A DNA stretch of 64,000 nt from Lasiosphaeris hirsuta (taxonomy: Eukaryota > Ascomycota > Sordariomycetes > Sordariales > Lasiosphaeriaceae), in contig JAUKUA010000006.1 in NCBI GenBank assembly GCA_030549175.1, forward strand, positions 3,782,001-3,846,000, read 5' to 3'. The translations under genes were made by a program, and so were the position numbers. Within the stretch, counting starts at the first letter, position 1; each line of letters opens with the position of its first letter. Below the pieces are notes generated by a model. That model ran no database searches. It was not told the DNA's origin and saw only the letters and a list, made by a program, of their open reading frames with translations. This document shows, piece by piece, positions 57,671 to 64,000 of the stretch.

Positions 57671-58092
57671 GGTTGAGATGGGAACAAATACTCTTGTCCC
57701 CGGATCATGTAATACCTCTGTCCCCGGATCATGTAATACCTCTGTCCCCGGATCAAGTAATACCTCAATCACAGCATTTGGAAAGCATGCCACCTGGACA
57801 AGTTTAGCGTAAAGGATTGTGGTTTCAAAAGAGTGTACCTAGACTAATACAACACCCAGACCCGTACCATTCGTCTCTCATTAGTAATGCCCTGGTTCAT
57901 CAAATAATGTCACGCCCTCACAGCCCAGTTCTCGATGCCTAGCCAATCCCCCCGAACATCCCATCTCCTCAACATCAAGCGTCCCCGGGAACCCTTTGAG
58001 AGTAAGAGTCGACAACCAATTATGCCAGGCTCGCCCCATTGCACTTTCAAGACAGGTGCCGTAGCAGCTGTCTCTGATTTCCCCCATGAGAC
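57671..58092. other. Spacer left of the peptide-precursor gene
   Basis: Contains three tandem CCCCGGATCATGTAATACCTCTGT-like units at 57698-57770 (about 24 bp each, the last diverged). It also holds the 3' end of the precursor gene. No gene supported. Confidence 0.5.
57698..57770 (+). repeat. Short tandem repeat, three ~24-bp units
   Basis: Three copies of a unit containing CCCCGGATCA(T/A)GTAATACCT, nearly perfect. Non-coding and AT/GC-balanced. It lies between the F-box relic and the precursor gene. Confidence 0.75.
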
Positions 58093-58643
58093 TTACTTGT
58101 TGACCTCGATGACGTAGTCCTCGACGCTGCCACGCTTGTTGACCTCGATGACATAATCCTCGACGGCATCCCGCTTCTTGTCGACGGAAATCACGTAGTC
58201 CTCAACGGCATCCCGCTTCTTGTCGACGGAGATGACGTAGTCTTCAACAGCATCCCGCTTCTTGTCGACGGAAATCACGTAGTCCTCGACGGCATCCCGC
58301 TTCTTGTCGACAGAGATGACGTAGTCTTCAACAGCATCCCGCTTCTTGTCGACGGAAATCACGTAGTCCTCGACGGCATCCCGCTTCTTGTCGACGGAGA
58401 TGACGTAGTCTTCGACAGTGGAACGCTTGTCGATGGGGATGACGTAGTCCTCAACGGACGAGCGCTTGTCAATGGGGATTACATAGTCCTCGACAACCCC
58501 GTTGCGCGCCGACAGAATGTTGGCCTGTTAATGTTAAGAGAGACGAAACTCGGGCATTGTGATGGTAGAGTTCTCACGGTGGGTGCAGCCAAGGCTCCAG
58601 CGAAAAAGGCCGAGACAATGAGCAAGGCGTTGGAGTGCTTCAT
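58093..58643 (-). CDS. Secreted repeat precursor of a dikaritin-type RiPP (KEX2-processed repeat protein)
   Basis: Exons 58578-58643 and 58093-58524 with a 53-nt intron (GTGAGA donor, TTAACAG acceptor) give 165 residues. A signal peptide (residues 1-20, ending GALAAPT) is followed by ten units, each VEDY plus a short core. Cores begin at Tyr36, 49, 62, 76, 90, 104, 118, 132, 146 and 159. They read YVIPID twice, YVISVD six times and YVIEVN twice. Units end in KR or KKR, the cut site of the Golgi protease Kex2; the last ends with the protein. This design is that of ustiloxin/phomopsin (dikaritin) precursors, and YVIPID is the core known for phomopsin A, a toxic cyclic hexapeptide. A UstYa-family gene lies 4.5 kb away. 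That a cyclic peptide is made, and whether it is toxic, is inference. Confidence 0.88.
58130..58490 (-). repeat. 42-bp coding repeats arranged as 84-bp pairs
   Basis: The six YVISVD units differ at silent sites in an alternating way: on the plus strand GGAAATCACGTAGTCCTC alternates with GAGATGACGTAGTCTTC. Units therefore multiplied as 84-bp pairs rather than singly. The flanking YVIPID (right) and YVIEVN (left) units are more diverged. Confidence 0.85.
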
Positions 58644-58768
58644 GATGGGCGTCGGAGTTGGTGAGGCAGCTGAAGGTCAGTGGGCTTCCTGTTTGTTGGC
58701 GAGTTTTATCAAAGACTGATGGATGGCTGTGTCTTGGTGATGTCTCTTTCCCTCGGCTTCATCATGTT

Positions 58769-58775
58769 CTTTATA
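58769..58775 (-). promoter_or_regulatory. TATA-like element of the precursor gene
   Basis: TATAAAG on the minus strand, about 125 bases upstream of the ATG at 58643. Confidence 0.5.
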
Positions 58776-59742
58776 GACAATATTTCCATTGCCATTGCTT
58801 GTGTGCCTTGCCATATTGCCGCCGTATGTCCAAACTTCCAACCAGGCGCTCGATGTTGTGCCCCCCCCGTCTCCGCGCTCGCCAAAACTGCACAAGGCGC
58901 TACTGGCCGTGGAATGTTGACGCCCCAGGTACCCAGGGTACCTAACACTATGGCAAACTAACGCACTACGGACTCCGCACACGAAACCGCACGCTGTCAA
59001 GGCGCGATGGGCGCCATGCAGAAGTCACACGGTGAAGATGGCGATCAGCAGGGAGTGGGGGAGTCTTACGGCGCGTAGAATTTGCCGCCGACCTCGGAGA
59101 ATTCCTCGAGCGAGACGCAGGATGACGGGATGTAAACACGCGCCTCAGCGTGTGACTGTGATTGGCTGCGCCATGTGTATCCCATTTCACGATCGGGCGC
59201 CAGCCAACGAAGAATGCTGCTAAGGGGTGGGTCCTAAGTTTCCTGCGACGCGCTATCTTGGCATCAGGACGGTCACTAGACGACCAGCCGAGCTCAGGGG
59301 CACGTTAAGGATGATCTTGAGTTGCTGGTCTAAGTTGTTGTGCAAGACGTGAGCCCTAACCCTTGATCCGGTTCATATCACGTCTTCTGAAGACTCCTGG
59401 CAAGGTAAATAAGTTCTAGCTAATTGTTTCCAAGTTCCTTTTTTTCGCAGGGCGGTTGGGTTGTACATTGGAGAAAGAATCCCTAGAGAAGGTGCGGAAC
59501 AGGAGGCTTCAGCGTATCCATCACAAGGATCGATATCATGATAGAACTAGTCAATGCATGTATCACACGCCAGTGTAAATTTTTTGCTACGTAATTTTTC
59601 CAGCGAGTAGGTATTGACCTGTAATCCTGACAACTCGGCCCCCCCCCCCCCAGGCGAGATGCAATTCAACTCGCCGACTCTCACGATAACTACCACTCCC
59701 TAATATAACATGCCACTGACATATATACCACTCCCGCCAACC
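58776..59742. other. Spacer between precursor and regulator genes
   Basis: Upstream region of the precursor gene and 3' region of the regulator, about 1 kb. Regulatory sites of the cluster would be expected here; I cannot single one out. C runs at 58861 and 59640. Confidence 0.4.
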
Positions 59743-61551
59743 CTACGAAAACAAGCCACCCACGCCCCCCCTCCTCAACACCGGCCTCCACTCCGCCACG
59801 CCCCCCTTATCCACCTCCCTCCAACACTCCTCCACAACAGCAACAAAATCCCACATCCCCTCCCCAGCCCCGCGCCGAAACACTTCCCGCTGCGCCCCCG
59901 TCGCCAAGCTAGCACACACGCAATACGGCCAGGCCAGCGCGCGGCCCACCCCGCCCCCGTGGCACTCCCAGGCCGCAATGGCGCGGTCGATGCCCTCGCG
60001 GATCTCGGGCACGCCGGTGCGCGCGCCCGACACGACCGTGTGCAGGTGGGTCAGCAGGGCGGCGGTGAAGATCTGGGTGGCGGGCGCGGTCGTGGTGGCC
60101 AGGTGGGTCTCGATGGATGCCTGCAGGGCGGCGGCGCGGGTGACGAGGGTCGGGATGGAGAGGTGGGCGAGGGCTTCTTGTTCTTGTTTCCAGACCTCGA
60201 GCGCCGTGGTGTCGAGGAGGGCGAGGGGGAGCCAAGGGGGGTGGCTGGTTGAGGTGTGGAAGGGGGTGGTGAAGGCGGGGGTGGTGAGGAGGGCGCGGTA
60301 GGCGGTGCTGGCCGAGGGGAGTTTTTGTTGCGACGAGGAGGTGAGGATGTCGTTCCAGATGAGGAGGGCGCGGGAGGTGTTGAGGGCTTGGAGTTCGAGG
60401 GGGGAGGGCGGTGTTGGTGGTTCGCTGTGCGTGATGAGGAGTTGGGCGGCCGAGTCGAGGTACGAGTGGCAGCTCTGCGTGTTCTTGCCGAGGGCCTGAT
60501 TGGAACGGGGGTTAGCTTTTTTATTTTTTATTTATTTTTGTTTCTCCCGTGTGGATAGCGTGCGTCTCACCTCCAACAAGGCAATTTGGACTGCACATAT
60601 CAGCGTCTCACCAGAGAATGACGGCAGTGACATTGCTTGCATGTCGGAGAAACCTTGTAGGGCGCGGGCCCGGTGTGCCTGGTAGTCCTGCAGGGCGGCG
60701 GCGCGGCCCGGGCTATCGGCCGGTAAGCTGAGCGAGAGGCGGTAGGCACTCATGCCAAGCGACGCGTGATAAAAGGTTGGCGATCTCAGGAGGAGAAAGA
60801 GGATCCAGCCGTTCTCTGGAGAAGCGTGCCCGATGAAGCGCATGATGAGATCAATGTCCTTCTCCGAGGGGATGGTATGCTGGGCTTTGGGTTGAGAACT
60901 GATCTCTGTTGAGGTGAAACTAAAGGGGGGCGCTTGTGGTGCTTGTGGTGCTTGTGGTGCTTGTGGTGCTTGTGGTGCTTGTGGTTCTTGTGGTGCTTGT
61001 GGTGCTTGTGGTGCTTGTGATGCTTGTGGCTCAGGGAGTTGTGACTGTGTCAACTCTGCTAGGGTACTGGTAGGATTTGCTACCGACCACATGTCTTCCG
61101 AGAAGGGAGGAATGTTTGCCGGCTCGGGCAGGGCCAGGCCGAGGGCTTCGAGTATGTCGAAATCGGCGGCATCTTGGGCACCGGCAGGCGGCGACAGGGA
61201 AAAGGAGAAGTCGGACGGAATAGGGGAGAACACCGGAGACCCAAAGAGGAGCGGTGGCGGCGTCACGGCCTCGATGGCGGTGGATGATGCCGACGTCGAC
61301 GACATGGACCTGGAGGACTCGGGGACGTGGCCGGGACTTGCGGTAGACCGCCGTCTCCTGGTGTGGAGCTGCAGCCTACCCGCCTCTTCTTTCTCCCGGT
61401 CTCCGCGGTCCTTCCAGCTGGGCTTGGGCCCGTAGCCATGGCAGAAGATGCCCCGGGCCTGGCAGTTGTTGCAGGGAGGGCCGGCTTCGTTGCACTTTTT
61501 CCGCCGCAGTCGGCAGGTCCAGCAGCCGCTTTTGCTCCGCTGTCCGGGCAT
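59743..61551 (-). CDS. Zn2Cys6 transcription factor, candidate cluster regulator
   Basis: Exons 60571-61551 and 59743-60495 with a 75-nt intron (GTGAGA donor, ATCAG acceptor) give 577 residues. The zinc cluster is at the N terminus: Cys10, 13, 20, 27, 30 and 37 (GCWTCRLRRKKC, PPCNNCQARGIFC). A Ser/Pro-rich linker follows, with a Gln-Ala-Pro repeat coded at 60931-61029. The region from about residue 230 (SEKDIDLIMRFIGHASPENGWILFLLL) onward is helical, as in fungal regulators with a C-terminal DUF3468-like half. It lies between the precursor and the UstYa gene on the same strand, so it may control them; known ustiloxin-type clusters also carry a Zn2Cys6 gene. That link is inferred. Confidence 0.87.
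60931..61029 (-). repeat. Imperfect 9-bp tandem repeat coding Gln-Ala-Pro
   Basis: About eleven GCTTGTGGT units on the plus strand with few changes, giving (Q-A-P)n in the linker of the regulator. Length variation between strains would keep the frame. Confidence 0.85.
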
Positions 61552-63106
61552 GGCACGTCAGGTTGGGTGAGAGCGCCTAGCGTCAACATGTTCAGTGGTG
61601 CGGCCACAGGCCACACAGCTGGCGCTTGGGGATCCGATATAAGGCACGAACGACTTTTCGCAATCAACAACAGTCCCGCTAGAGACGAAGACGATGGGGA
61701 TGGCGTTATTGCCCACGGTGCACAGTAGCCGCGCATTCTCGCGACCTGCTCAAGCTCCGTCGATCATAAACCGCTGAGCCAGTGCCGATGGTTTGCAGCA
61801 ACTCCAGACTCGCGCGACCTGCAGTCCATCCATGTCGCCGCGGGCCCCAACACGGCCAAGCTTGAATCGCGCGGTTGGCGAAAGGGGAGAATCGGGATCA
61901 TGTGTGGTGCCTGGGCGAGCTACATGTGTTAGTCGATGCCGTCCGCTCTAAATGGTGGCGCCGCCTGAGGCAGAGCATTGGCCAATGGAATTCAAAACAG
62001 CATGATTCCGGGCTTGACGCTGGGTCGGTCTGGTGGCCGAGCTGCGGCAGGGATGCCCGTTGAACTCAAAACGGTTAGTTATCAGCTGCAGCTCATCGTC
62101 ACACCAGAAGGCGACGGAAGCGGGGTGGTGCTTTTCGCCATCTCAGATCGTAGCCAAATCGTTCAAGCGGTGATGGTATCTTTTGGATATAGCTTTGAAG
62201 AAAGGGTGCTATCTCAAGGCCCCGCTAGTTTTCTTTCTCTTGTTTCTCTCAACGGGTGCAAGTTGTTAGCAGCAGCGGTTAACCATTCTAACCTTTGCCC
62301 CATCTTGGATAACAAAAAATGGGATTCAGATGGAGGGGGTCGTATCTGCCGGTACCCGCGGATTTTGACAAATCAACTCTGATCTCATCCGATGAGGGAG
62401 AAGCCAAGATGGGATCTTGGGGAAAGTCACTAACAAACAAGGCAGGGAACATATGCCCGCATGATCGGCAGTGCGTCCGCCTCGGGATGTGCTTCTGCAT
62501 TGTCAATCTGCGTGCATTGGCCCCTGGGGGGCTCCTGCTGTTCAGGAGATAGATTGTCGGATACGATACGTAATTTCTACCCCTGGCGCCCTGGTCAGTC
62601 GTGCCGTTGGTCAACCAACCCCACCGTCTCCTCCCTGCGTGTCTCACTTCTACGCGAGACAAGCTTGAACAAGTCAACAAACAACAAGCAAGACATTTGC
62701 CAGCCATCCGCTTTTTTGTCGGGGGCAACTTACACTGGGTACAATTGAACGATGCAAGTCTTCGGACTTGCTGGCAGACAAACCAGAAGACTTGATCTTG
62801 GCGATAACGAGGACTGGTAGGCCGAATTCGAAATCAATGTCGACGACGTGATATGTTGCCCGTTGATTCCACGATGAAGTCTCGCGTCCAGAGGGATCCA
62901 GTCCCGAGACACCTAGTACTATCCGCACGGCTTCCATGCACGTACTACTGGTAAAACAGATTCAAATAACAAATGCAAGACATACGATACCGAGACCTGT
63001 GGCCGGTAAACGAATCTGAATGAGACAAAGGACGTTGGCGTAATACCAAACAACGTGCTGTACCACTGCTTACACAACGTGCCACAGGCCACTAGGCCCC
63101 CTCCAC
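61552..63106. other. Spacer inside the putative RiPP cluster, 1.55 kb
   Basis: No gene supported. Short overlapping frames only. It should include the regulator's promoter and the 3' end of the UstYa gene. Confidence 0.4.
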
Positions 63107-63983
63107 TCAATGAATCCACTTATTATCCGTCAACCGATGCTCCTCCGCCCAGGCATAAATGGCGCCAAAGTCCTTACACGTGTGGCGGTATCCCCAGCCG
63201 GTGCTGCCCGTGTCCTCGGGCGCGAGCCACTCGAGCGTCGTGTCGGCCGAGCACATGATGCCCTGGCGCAGGTAGTCCCAGCAGTGCATCAGGTGCGGCA
63301 CGTTGACGTCGTCGAGGTTGCCCGACCGGGCGGCGAAGTAGCCCGCTCGGGTCATGTACTATGCATTTCGTCATTGTTAGAATCAGGGGGGGGGGTTGTT
63401 GTCGAGGGGGACAGGGGATTACCAGGCAGTGCAGCTGGTGGAACATGCTGATCATGGCGTGCTTGTCGCCCCGCGCTGACTTGTCTAGCCGTGGCAGATC
63501 CGGCAGGGTGGTTTGGTTGTTGATGATGACAAATCCTTTGCCCTCTGTGGGAGATGGGGTTAGTTCCTGGGATCAAGGGGGTTTGTTTTGGTACTTGCTT
63601 GGAATCAAGGCAGTCCAGGCATCGTCAACCACGGTGCTCGGATCGGCCCCGTAGAGGGTCTCGAAGCGGAAAATCTCGGTACGGATGTGCTCCGGGGGCA
63701 GGAGCCCCATATTCTGGTCGGTTGAATCTAGGGATTGCTTGTGATGCGGAAGGAGGAAAATTGCGGTAAATAACGACAGAAGCAGGATGTTTGAAATGGC
63801 AAGAAGAATGGTGAGGAATGATAGACTGAAACGAGTCAGGAAGCTCGGGCAGCTCCGTCCCGGAGATGAGCGAGACGGCGAGCTCGCCTCGATGAGATGC
63901 TCTTTTTCTTCCTCCATGAACTGAGTGCTGGAGGACCTTGATGTCAATGAACTCTGGTCATCTCTGTCATGGTAGTGATCCAT
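63107..63983 (-). CDS. UstYa-family protein (DUF3328), RiPP oxidative cyclase type
   Basis: Exons 63599-63983, 63423-63544 and 63107-63358 give 252 residues. The first intron (54 nt) is GC/AG with a perfect A|GCAAGT donor and restores the family motif LIPKGKGFV; the second (64 nt) is GT/AG. The N terminus is Ser-rich and cytosolic, followed by one membrane span at about 48-78 (FLTRFSLSFLTILLAISNILL). The lumenal part holds both HxxHC motifs that define the family: His164-Gln-Leu-His167-Cys168 and His191-Leu-Met-His194-Cys195, followed by WDYLRQGIMC. UstYa proteins act in oxidative macrocyclisation of Kex2-released peptides in ustiloxin, phomopsin and asperipin pathways. With the precursor on the same strand this is the second key part of a dikaritin cluster. 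Confidence 0.93.
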
Positions 63984-64000
63984 TGTTGGGGGCGATGCCG
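63984..64000. other. Window edge inside the putative cluster
   Basis: Only 17 bases upstream of the UstYa start are visible. Its promoter and any further cluster genes lie beyond this end. Confidence 0.6.

What the first reader, a model, noticed from the sequence alone, without database searches (positions are those of the whole stretch)
58093..58643. A phomopsin-like RiPP precursor with three different cores
Seen: signal peptide, ten repeats, Lys-Arg sites, and cores YVIPID (2), YVISVD (6), YVIEVN (2). Known: dikaritin precursors have exactly this layout, and YVIPID is the core of phomopsin A. Inference: one precursor may give a mixture of cyclic peptides, of which the most abundant core (YVISVD) differs from the phomopsin core at two positions. 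I do not know of this core set being described. Since phomopsins are antimitotic mycotoxins, the locus also matters for toxin surveillance.
Basis: partly seen in the sequence, partly recalled or inferred. Interest (0 to 1): 0.95.

Follow-up and report, generated by a model that had tools for sequence, protein, structure and literature searches.

The report
Fungal cyclic-peptide precursor with three cores
In the genome of the fungus Lasiosphaeris hirsuta, one gene encodes ten near-identical short peptides of three kinds beside genes for the enzymes that turn such peptides into small rings, so it looks like a new member of the phomopsin and ustiloxin family, although its role may be sexual development rather than poison.

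Summary
Window 58093-58643 (-) encodes a 165-aa protein (signal peptide, one 53-bp intron, ten EDYVI repeats, nine Lys-Arg sites) with cores YVIPID x2, YVISVD x6, YVIEVN x2. The genome matches Lasiosphaeris hirsuta, order Sordariales. The locus is one end of a roughly 20-kb cluster running past the window's end: Zn2Cys6 regulator, four UstYa proteins, oligopeptide transporter, methyltransferase (40% identical to PhomM'), S41-like peptidase (weak S41 match) and tyrosinase. The gene classes a review lists as conserved in dikaritin clusters are all represented. EDYVI shows only synonymous changes while the last three core residues vary, which suggests one Tyr-Val-Ile ring with three tails.

It is a new member of a known kind. 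YVISVD is not unique: a Hypoxylon rubiginosum protein has it three times, and multi-core precursors are in print. The toxin inference is unproven. A studied relative in the same order, Neurospora poi-2, acts in sexual development, and its cluster also has a zinc-finger gene of neighbouring number and an oligopeptide transporter. Both roles are open; product, transcription and activity are untested.

The parts
58093..58643 (-). Precursor gene (165 aa, two exons): signal peptide, short spacer, ten EDYVIxxx repeats with nine Lys-Arg sites
   Evidence: translation and splice-aware model; similar precursors in Colletotrichum and Hypoxylon
58578..58643 (-). Exon 1: signal peptide ending ALA-AP
   Evidence: signal peptide judged by eye from its hydrophobic core and AxA motif, no predictor run
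58525..58577 (-). 53-bp GT-AG intron
58108..58495 (-). Tandem repeat array (39-42 bp units, 84-bp double units in the YVISVD block)
   Evidence: Tandem Repeats Finder; codon table
58644..59350 (.). Upstream region of the precursor with 7 WGGCGC matches (candidate regulator site)
   Evidence: motif chosen after the fact
59743..61551 (-). Zn2Cys6 transcription factor, PhomR/UstR-like in domain make-up (model 528 aa; the intron at 60899-61045 is doubtful because a 341-aa frame reads through it)
   Evidence: PF00172 E 1.1e-7, PF11951 E 1e-14; model
63107..63983 (-). UstYa protein 1 (248 aa, hydrophobic segment, HQLHC and HLMHC motifs)
   Evidence: PF11807 E 2.7e-22; model
63984..64000 (.). Window ends here. 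The cluster continues in L039/L040: UstYa2 L039:7178-8121(-), OPT transporter L039:8421-L040:748(+), methyltransferase L040:1131-2024(+), UstYa3 L040:2520-3461(+), S41/CPAF-type peptidase about L040:3567-5832(-), tyrosinase about L040:6272-7613(+), UstYa4 about L040:8597-9815(+)
   Evidence: starts of the last three models are uncertain (several were tried)

Best explanation
This is the precursor gene of a dikaritin-type RiPP cluster in Lasiosphaeris hirsuta. The precursor enters the secretory pathway through its signal peptide; a Kex2-type protease cuts after each Lys-Arg; the S41-like peptidase and others trim to the core; tyrosinase plus UstYa proteins join the Tyr phenol to the Ile side chain; the PhomM'-like enzyme methylates the N-terminal amine; the oligopeptide transporter may move product or intermediate. 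All ten units keep EDYVI, so one ring (Tyr-Val-Ile) with three tails (PID, SVD, EVN, or only P, S, E if trimmed to four residues as in ustiloxin) is expected, about 2:6:2 if processing is uniform. Shown here: precursor anatomy, gene content, open frames, homology of the methyltransferase to PhomM', and synonymous-only change in EDYVI against replacements in the tail. Inferred from named relatives: every processing and chemical step. What the peptides do is left open between a toxin and a developmental signal.
For: Precursor anatomy. Four UstYa genes within about 15 kb on contig C11; all four modelled proteins match PF11807 and each shows two HxxHC motifs. Tyrosinase model E 7.7e-41. Methyltransferase 40% identical over 96% to Diaporthe PhomM'. 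Zn2Cys6, OPT and CPAF/S41 domains. PMC6514808 (passages) lists PhomA, PhomQ, PhomR-like zinc finger, S41 peptidase and DUF3328 as the conserved dikaritin set. Upstream regions share an enriched WGGCGC motif, 32 matches against 7.1 +/- 2.8 in shuffles.
Against: No transcript, peptide mass or activity was available. No L. hirsuta protein for this gene came back in two database searches that scored 7,992 and 7,996 capped candidates, so it may be unannotated and its expression is unknown. The S41 match (8.2e-5, 22.7 bits) is below Pfam's cut-off of 24; the CPAF-like PDZ match (3.3e-21) carries the call. PhomA, PhomQ and PhomR were not compared directly; PhomA was not among the hits. Phomopsin has five DUF3328 genes, here four were found. 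UstYa and tyrosinase domains are common in this genome: the cluster holds 6 of 41 exon-level UstYa matches and 3 of 42 tyrosinase matches, so single genes mean less than the combination.
Confidence: 0.87

Rival explanations
1. The cluster is the Lasiosphaeris counterpart of the Neurospora poi-2 cluster: its cyclic peptides act as a signal in female sexual development rather than as a mycotoxin.
For: POI2 is described as homologous to the ustiloxin and phomopsin precursors and essential for female structures and perithecial development (PMC7329392, Discussion section read). The N. crassa cluster holding poi-2 has a zinc-finger gene of neighbouring number (NCU05767/NCU05768) and an oligopeptide transporter opt-5, and is coordinately expressed in sexual development (PMC9239088 passages); here a Zn2Cys6 gene is the next gene found beside the precursor and an OPT gene lies in the cluster. 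In a tree of 31 hand-picked named rows of the 117 methyltransferase hits, L. hirsuta groups with Lasiosphaeria hispida (100/99), then Bombardia (85/89), then Neurospora and Sordaria (80/84), as vertical descent within Sordariales would give.
Against: In N. crassa no knockout phenotype was seen for any gene of that cluster other than pre-2 and poi-2 (PMC9239088 passage), which speaks against a role that needs the modified peptide. POI2's sequence was not obtained, so the repeats were not compared, and the class of the N. crassa zinc finger is not stated in the passages. The pheromone receptor pre-2 belongs to the N. crassa cluster; here the STE2 receptor is on the same contig but 1.8 Mb away. 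That the Neurospora methyltransferase lies in the poi-2 cluster was not shown. Support on the deeper forks is moderate.
Confidence: 0.4
2. The cluster makes antimitotic phomopsin-like mycotoxins, used against grazers or competitors.
For: The phomopsin sequence YVIPID is present twice, the ring residues are kept in ten of ten units, and the phomopsin enzyme set including a PhomM'-like methyltransferase is present.
Against: Eight of ten units have other tails. No product is known. A functional precedent in the same order is developmental. YVIP cores also occur in Zymoseptoria, Sordaria and Colletotrichum, for which that paper's Discussion reports no toxin.
Confidence: 0.4
3. A linear Kex2-processed signal or pheromone-like peptide; the neighbouring enzymes belong to something else.
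For: Some Kex2-processed repeat proteins give linear peptides with known roles (PMC7329392).
Against: Cluster gene content and the PhomM'-like enzyme fit a modified product; repeats of UstYa-accompanied precursors contain Tyr in 65.6% against 38.2% otherwise; Tyr and Ile are the ring-closing residues in ustiloxin and phomopsin.
Confidence: 0.06
4. Decayed or silent locus.
For: No L. hirsuta protein model for the precursor was returned.
Against: All ten genes could be modelled with open frames; changes in EDYVI are synonymous only.
Confidence: 0.06

Closest known systems
Hypoxylon rubiginosum F4820DRAFT_428436 (P0003); a putative ustiloxin-like RiPP cluster in this species is in print (PMC8403587, passages)
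   Same: Signal-peptide-like start, EDYVI repeats with Kex2-type sites, core YVISVD (3 copies) and a Glu tail (YVIEVD); a methyltransferase 48% identical to the one here bears a locus tag ten numbers away and the same listed contig length
   Different: Four units, no YVIPID, linkers of the form DKxKR; YVIEVD where L. hirsuta has YVIEVN
Phomopsin cluster of Phomopsis (Diaporthe) leptostromiformis
   Same: YVIPID sequence, tyrosinase, methyltransferase (PhomM' 40% identical), DUF3328, S41 and zinc-finger genes
   Different: PhomA has eight repeats and the cluster five DUF3328 genes; here ten repeats with three cores and four UstYa genes; an OPT gene is present here and is not mentioned in the phomopsin passages seen
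Ustiloxin clusters (Aspergillus flavus, Ustilaginoidea virens)
   Same: Repeat precursor, KexB processing, C6 regulator; the U. virens precursor already mixes two cores, YVIG x5 and YAIG x3 (PMC4740483 passages)
   Different: Core YA/VIG; in U. virens the variation is in ring position 2, here it is in the tail
Neurospora crassa poi-2 cluster (SMC no. 20)
   Same: Precursor of the ustiloxin/phomopsin type, zinc-finger gene of neighbouring number, oligopeptide transporter; L. hirsuta is in Sordariales, the order of Neurospora (recalled)
   Different: Pheromone receptor pre-2 in the cluster; POI2 sequence not compared here
Colletotrichum precursors (P0001, P0121-P0125, P0127, P0129)
   Same: Signal-peptide-like start plus DYVIPIDKR repeats ending in IDK-stop
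   Different: 2-5 units, YVIPID throughout except one YVTPID unit in P0121

Membership tests
Dikaritins (ustiloxin/phomopsin type) | Secreted precursor with tandem repeats separated by Kex2-type sites | tested here: met
   (signal peptide by eye)
Dikaritins (ustiloxin/phomopsin type) | EDYxI unit / core Y-x-I | tested here: met
   10 of 10 units EDYVI; EDYXI as the conserved core: PMC6339444
Dikaritins (ustiloxin/phomopsin type) | UstYa/DUF3328 genes next to the precursor | tested here: met
   four genes
Dikaritins (ustiloxin/phomopsin type) | Tyrosinase (PhomQ/UstQ class) | tested here: met
   PF00264 E 7.7e-41 on the spliced model; PhomQ itself not compared
Dikaritins (ustiloxin/phomopsin type) | S41 family peptidase | tested here: inconclusive
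   largest exon: PF23658 CPAF-like PDZ 3.3e-21; PF03572 S41 8.2e-5, 22.7 bits against a cut-off of 24; spliced protein not scanned
Dikaritins (ustiloxin/phomopsin type) | PhomR-like zinc-finger regulator | tested here: met
   PF00172 and PF11951; PhomR itself not compared
Dikaritins (ustiloxin/phomopsin type) | Tyr-Ile ether-linked product | not testable with these tools
   needs LC-MS/MS and NMR
Phomopsin producers in the strict sense | YVIPID as the core | tested here: inconclusive
   2 of 10 units only
Phomopsin producers in the strict sense | PhomM-type methyltransferase | tested here: met
   40% identity over 96% to PhomM'
Phomopsin producers in the strict sense | Five DUF3328 genes | tested here: not met
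   four found near the precursor by PF11807; the six-frame search can miss short exons
POI2-type developmental precursor | Sequence homology to POI2 | not tested
   POI2 sequence not obtained; homology of POI2 to ustiloxin and phomopsin precursors is from PMC7329392
POI2-type developmental precursor | Zinc-finger gene beside the precursor and OPT gene in the cluster | tested here: met
   against PMC9239088
POI2-type developmental precursor | Pheromone receptor in the cluster | tested here: not met
   STE2 at C11:2043288, 1.8 Mb away
POI2-type developmental precursor | Needed for fertility | not testable with these tools
   needs gene deletion

The most novel reading that the evidence does not exclude
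One precursor encodes a constant ring with a deliberately varied tail, a built-in small library (PID, SVD, EVN) used as a species-typical blend in sexual development, so that phomopsin-type toxins would be an offshoot of a mating or fruiting signal kept in Sordariales.
Probability: 0.17. Interest if true: 0.7.

Novelty: new member of a known kind. Interest (0 to 1): 0.42.

Why it matters
It adds a complete-looking dikaritin cluster from a Sordariales species, the order of Neurospora, and a precursor with more core kinds than any of the 12 relatives found here. It shows where the variation sits: ring residues fixed, tail free. A rule keyed on YVIPID alone (PMC7099791 names that query, with ustYa/ustYb as further ones) would catch this gene through 2 of its 10 units and would not match the Hypoxylon type with YVISVD and YVIEVD only. 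Because Neurospora POI2 is described as the same precursor type, the locus offers a testable link between toxin-type RiPPs and fungal sexual development.

Tried and rejected
Search for the precursor in bacterial and archaeal genome contigs: 44 pattern matches, none a relative. Search of the own genome for a second copy of this precursor: only this locus; the two further matches are at E 2.05 and 3.81. The first paper search for core strings was swamped by the genus name Phoma; repeated with better terms. A PDB search of the methyltransferase gave only general methyltransferases; an NCBIfam scan of five frames gave general methyltransferases, OPT models for the transporter, and nothing for the other three. 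First gene models truncated several genes and were redone with fixed starts. A short open frame upstream of UstYa1 was read by eye as a possible second precursor and rejected: no repeats seen, and the repeat scan of the window, L039 and L040 listed only the known precursor. No repeat precursor was found by that scan at the UstYa-rich stretch C13:700-720k. Considered and set aside: asperipin and epichloecyclin classes, because the Tyr comes first and the Ile is internal, as in ustiloxin and phomopsin (PMC9233826 passages).

Limits on novelty claims: searches found no held paper printing YVIS/YVIE beside another core or YVISVD/YVIEVN anywhere; YVIPID was in one (PMC7099791). The library lacks most subscription papers, and figures are not searchable, so the core tables of Ding 2016 (not held; nothing read) and the figures of PMC7329392 could hold them. 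Kim and Nelson 2005 on poi-2 was not held either (nothing read).

The S41 row went from met to inconclusive.

Full report
WHAT IS THERE. On the minus strand, 58643-58093, two exons around a 53-bp intron (58577-58525) encode a 165-aa protein: a signal peptide ending ALA-AP (judged by eye), a short spacer, ten units with EDYVI, nine Lys-Arg sites and a last unit ending K-stop. Cores, read as the six residues from Tyr, are YVIPID 2, YVISVD 6, YVIEVN 2. Tandem Repeats Finder finds the array with scores up to 488; the best-scoring period is 84 bp, a double unit, and the codon table shows two alternating codon patterns in the six YVISVD units, so the block probably grew by duplicating pairs.

MORE THAN CHANCE. 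Across the ten copies the five EDYVI codons show at least six codon changes, every one synonymous; the fraction of single-base changes that would be synonymous is 0.11-0.33 per codon. Multiplying these gives about 3e-5, a rough figure of mine that ignores transition bias (which would weaken it) and the relatedness of the copies. Core positions 4-6 carry replacements (P/S/E, I/V, D/N). In ustiloxin and phomopsin the ring is closed between Tyr and Ile (PMC7329392; PMC6514808), so the part kept is the ring part and the part that varies is the tail.

ORGANISM. The methyltransferase in the cluster is 100% identical over 297 aa to B0H67DRAFT_495731 of Lasiosphaeris hirsuta, whose listed contig length, 4,599,326, equals that of contig C11 here. 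The species belongs to Sordariales, Lasiosphaeriaceae. No L. hirsuta protein for the precursor itself was returned by two searches, each of which scored a capped list of just under 8,000 candidates, so it may be unannotated.

THE CLUSTER. The window ends inside it; contig stretches beyond the window were fetched. In order: precursor (-), Zn2Cys6 regulator (-), UstYa1 (-), UstYa2 (-), OPT transporter (+), methyltransferase (+), UstYa3 (+), S41/CPAF-type peptidase (-), tyrosinase (+), UstYa4 (+). Spliced UstYa models 1, 2 and 4 match PF11807 at 2.7e-22, 3.4e-45 and 2.8e-37 and model 3 at 4.5e-28; each shows two HxxHC motifs. The tyrosinase model matches PF00264 at 7.7e-41 and needs a GC-AG intron. 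The methyltransferase is 40% identical over 96% to PhomM' of Diaporthe leptostromiformis. The main peptidase exon has a CPAF-like PDZ domain at 3.3e-21 and S41 at 8.2e-5, the latter just below its cut-off. These models are my own from a simple script; several starts and one regulator intron are uncertain. UstYa and tyrosinase domains are frequent in this genome (41 and 42 exon-level matches, of which 6 and 3 lie in this cluster), so it is the combination that counts. Upstream, 10 of the 22 open frames of 150 aa or more between 45.3 and 57.4 kb (list) were scanned and two matched tannase/feruloyl esterase, one of them just under the cut-off; beyond UstYa4, 7 of 14 listed frames of L041 and L042 were scanned and matched nothing. 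The cluster borders are therefore likely but not proven.

A SHARED UPSTREAM MOTIF. AGGCGC is the most enriched hexamer after the poly-C run in eight intergenic stretches (4,292 bases; 17 seen, 2.55 expected). WGGCGC matches 32 times there, counting both strands so that GGCGCC can count twice; 8 of 8 stretches have at least one and 6 of 8 at least three. Shuffles gave 7.1 +/- 2.8 (1000, maximum 17); elsewhere it is 1.2 per kb, and 3.7% of 489 windows of 537 bases have three or more (some of the loci used overlap one another). Against: the motif was picked after the fact, gene bodies of the cluster are also raised (2.35 per kb), for AGGCGC alone the largest shuffle value equalled the observed 17, and scattered kilobases outside the cluster reach 4-5. 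It is a lead for the site of the cluster regulator.

RELATIVES. Two searches returned 12 distinct precursor relatives. With the window's own that makes 13: 5 of 13 hold more than one core by the count (L. hirsuta, P0003, P0121, P0126, P0128), and only L. hirsuta holds three. YVISVD is in 2 of 13, the other being Hypoxylon rubiginosum F4820DRAFT_428436 (YVISVD x3, YVIEVD x1). So the core set as a whole is new to what I could search, but its main core is not unique.

WHAT IT DOES. For a toxin: YVIPID is the phomopsin sequence (PMC7099791) and the enzyme set fits. For a developmental signal: POI2 of Neurospora crassa is described as the same precursor type and essential for female structures and perithecia (PMC7329392 Discussion); its cluster contains a zinc-finger gene of neighbouring number and an oligopeptide transporter and is coordinately expressed in sexual development (PMC9239088 passages); the regulator ADA-6 acts positively on poi-2 and pre-2 in sexual development (PMC6468284 passages). 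The methyltransferase tree, 31 hand-picked named rows of 117 hits, puts L. hirsuta with Lasiosphaeria (100/99), Bombardia (85/89) and then Neurospora and Sordaria (80/84). Against the link: in N. crassa no knockout phenotype was seen for the cluster's genes other than pre-2 and poi-2, POI2 was not compared by sequence, and the STE2 receptor is 1.8 Mb away on the same contig, whereas pre-2 belongs to the N. crassa cluster. Deletion of the ustiloxin cluster or the asperipin precursor gave no phenotype in A. flavus (PMC7329392 passage), which helps neither reading. I rate the two about equal.

VERDICT. A real, complete-looking dikaritin cluster; new member of a known kind; the multi-core idea has precedents (U. 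virens YVIG/YAIG, PMC4740483; Penicillium, Neurospora and Beauveria). The surveillance argument is not supported by anything tested.

Noticed in passing
L058:8937-9439 (G000:C7:260937-261439, +): A second repeat precursor in the same genome: 145 aa, signal-peptide-like start, eight DATQYYD units with KR or KKR sites between them, one intron; a UstYa match lies about 2.3 kb away (C7:258141-258638)..
   Followed up: partly
G000:C13:706204-715414: UstYa-rich stretch with eight exon-level matches within about 9 kb; no repeat precursor found by a simple scan.
   Followed up: partly
window 58644-59350, 61552-62300 and further cluster promoters: WGGCGC hexamers enriched upstream of the cluster genes, a possible binding site of the cluster regulator.
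   Followed up: partly
L040:7331-7383 (tyrosinase gene): The last intron fits best as a rare GC-AG intron, which gives the motif DPLFYVHHAQLDRMWW in frame.
   Followed up: partly
L039:6415 onward (+), upstream of UstYa1: Short open frame beginning like a signal peptide (MRSLTIVFMAVCLHSAVG), no repeats seen; nature unknown (read by eye).
   Followed up: no
window 60932-61029: 9-bp repeat (about 11 copies) inside the regulator gene; the script's model puts it in an intron, but a 341-aa open frame reads through it.
   Followed up: no
window 57687-57766: 24-bp repeat, 3.3 copies, downstream of the precursor gene.
   Followed up: no
G000:C11:2043288-2044188: The only STE2-type pheromone receptor found in the genome is on the same contig as the cluster, 1.8 Mb away; in N. 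crassa the receptor pre-2 and poi-2 are listed in one cluster.
   Followed up: partly
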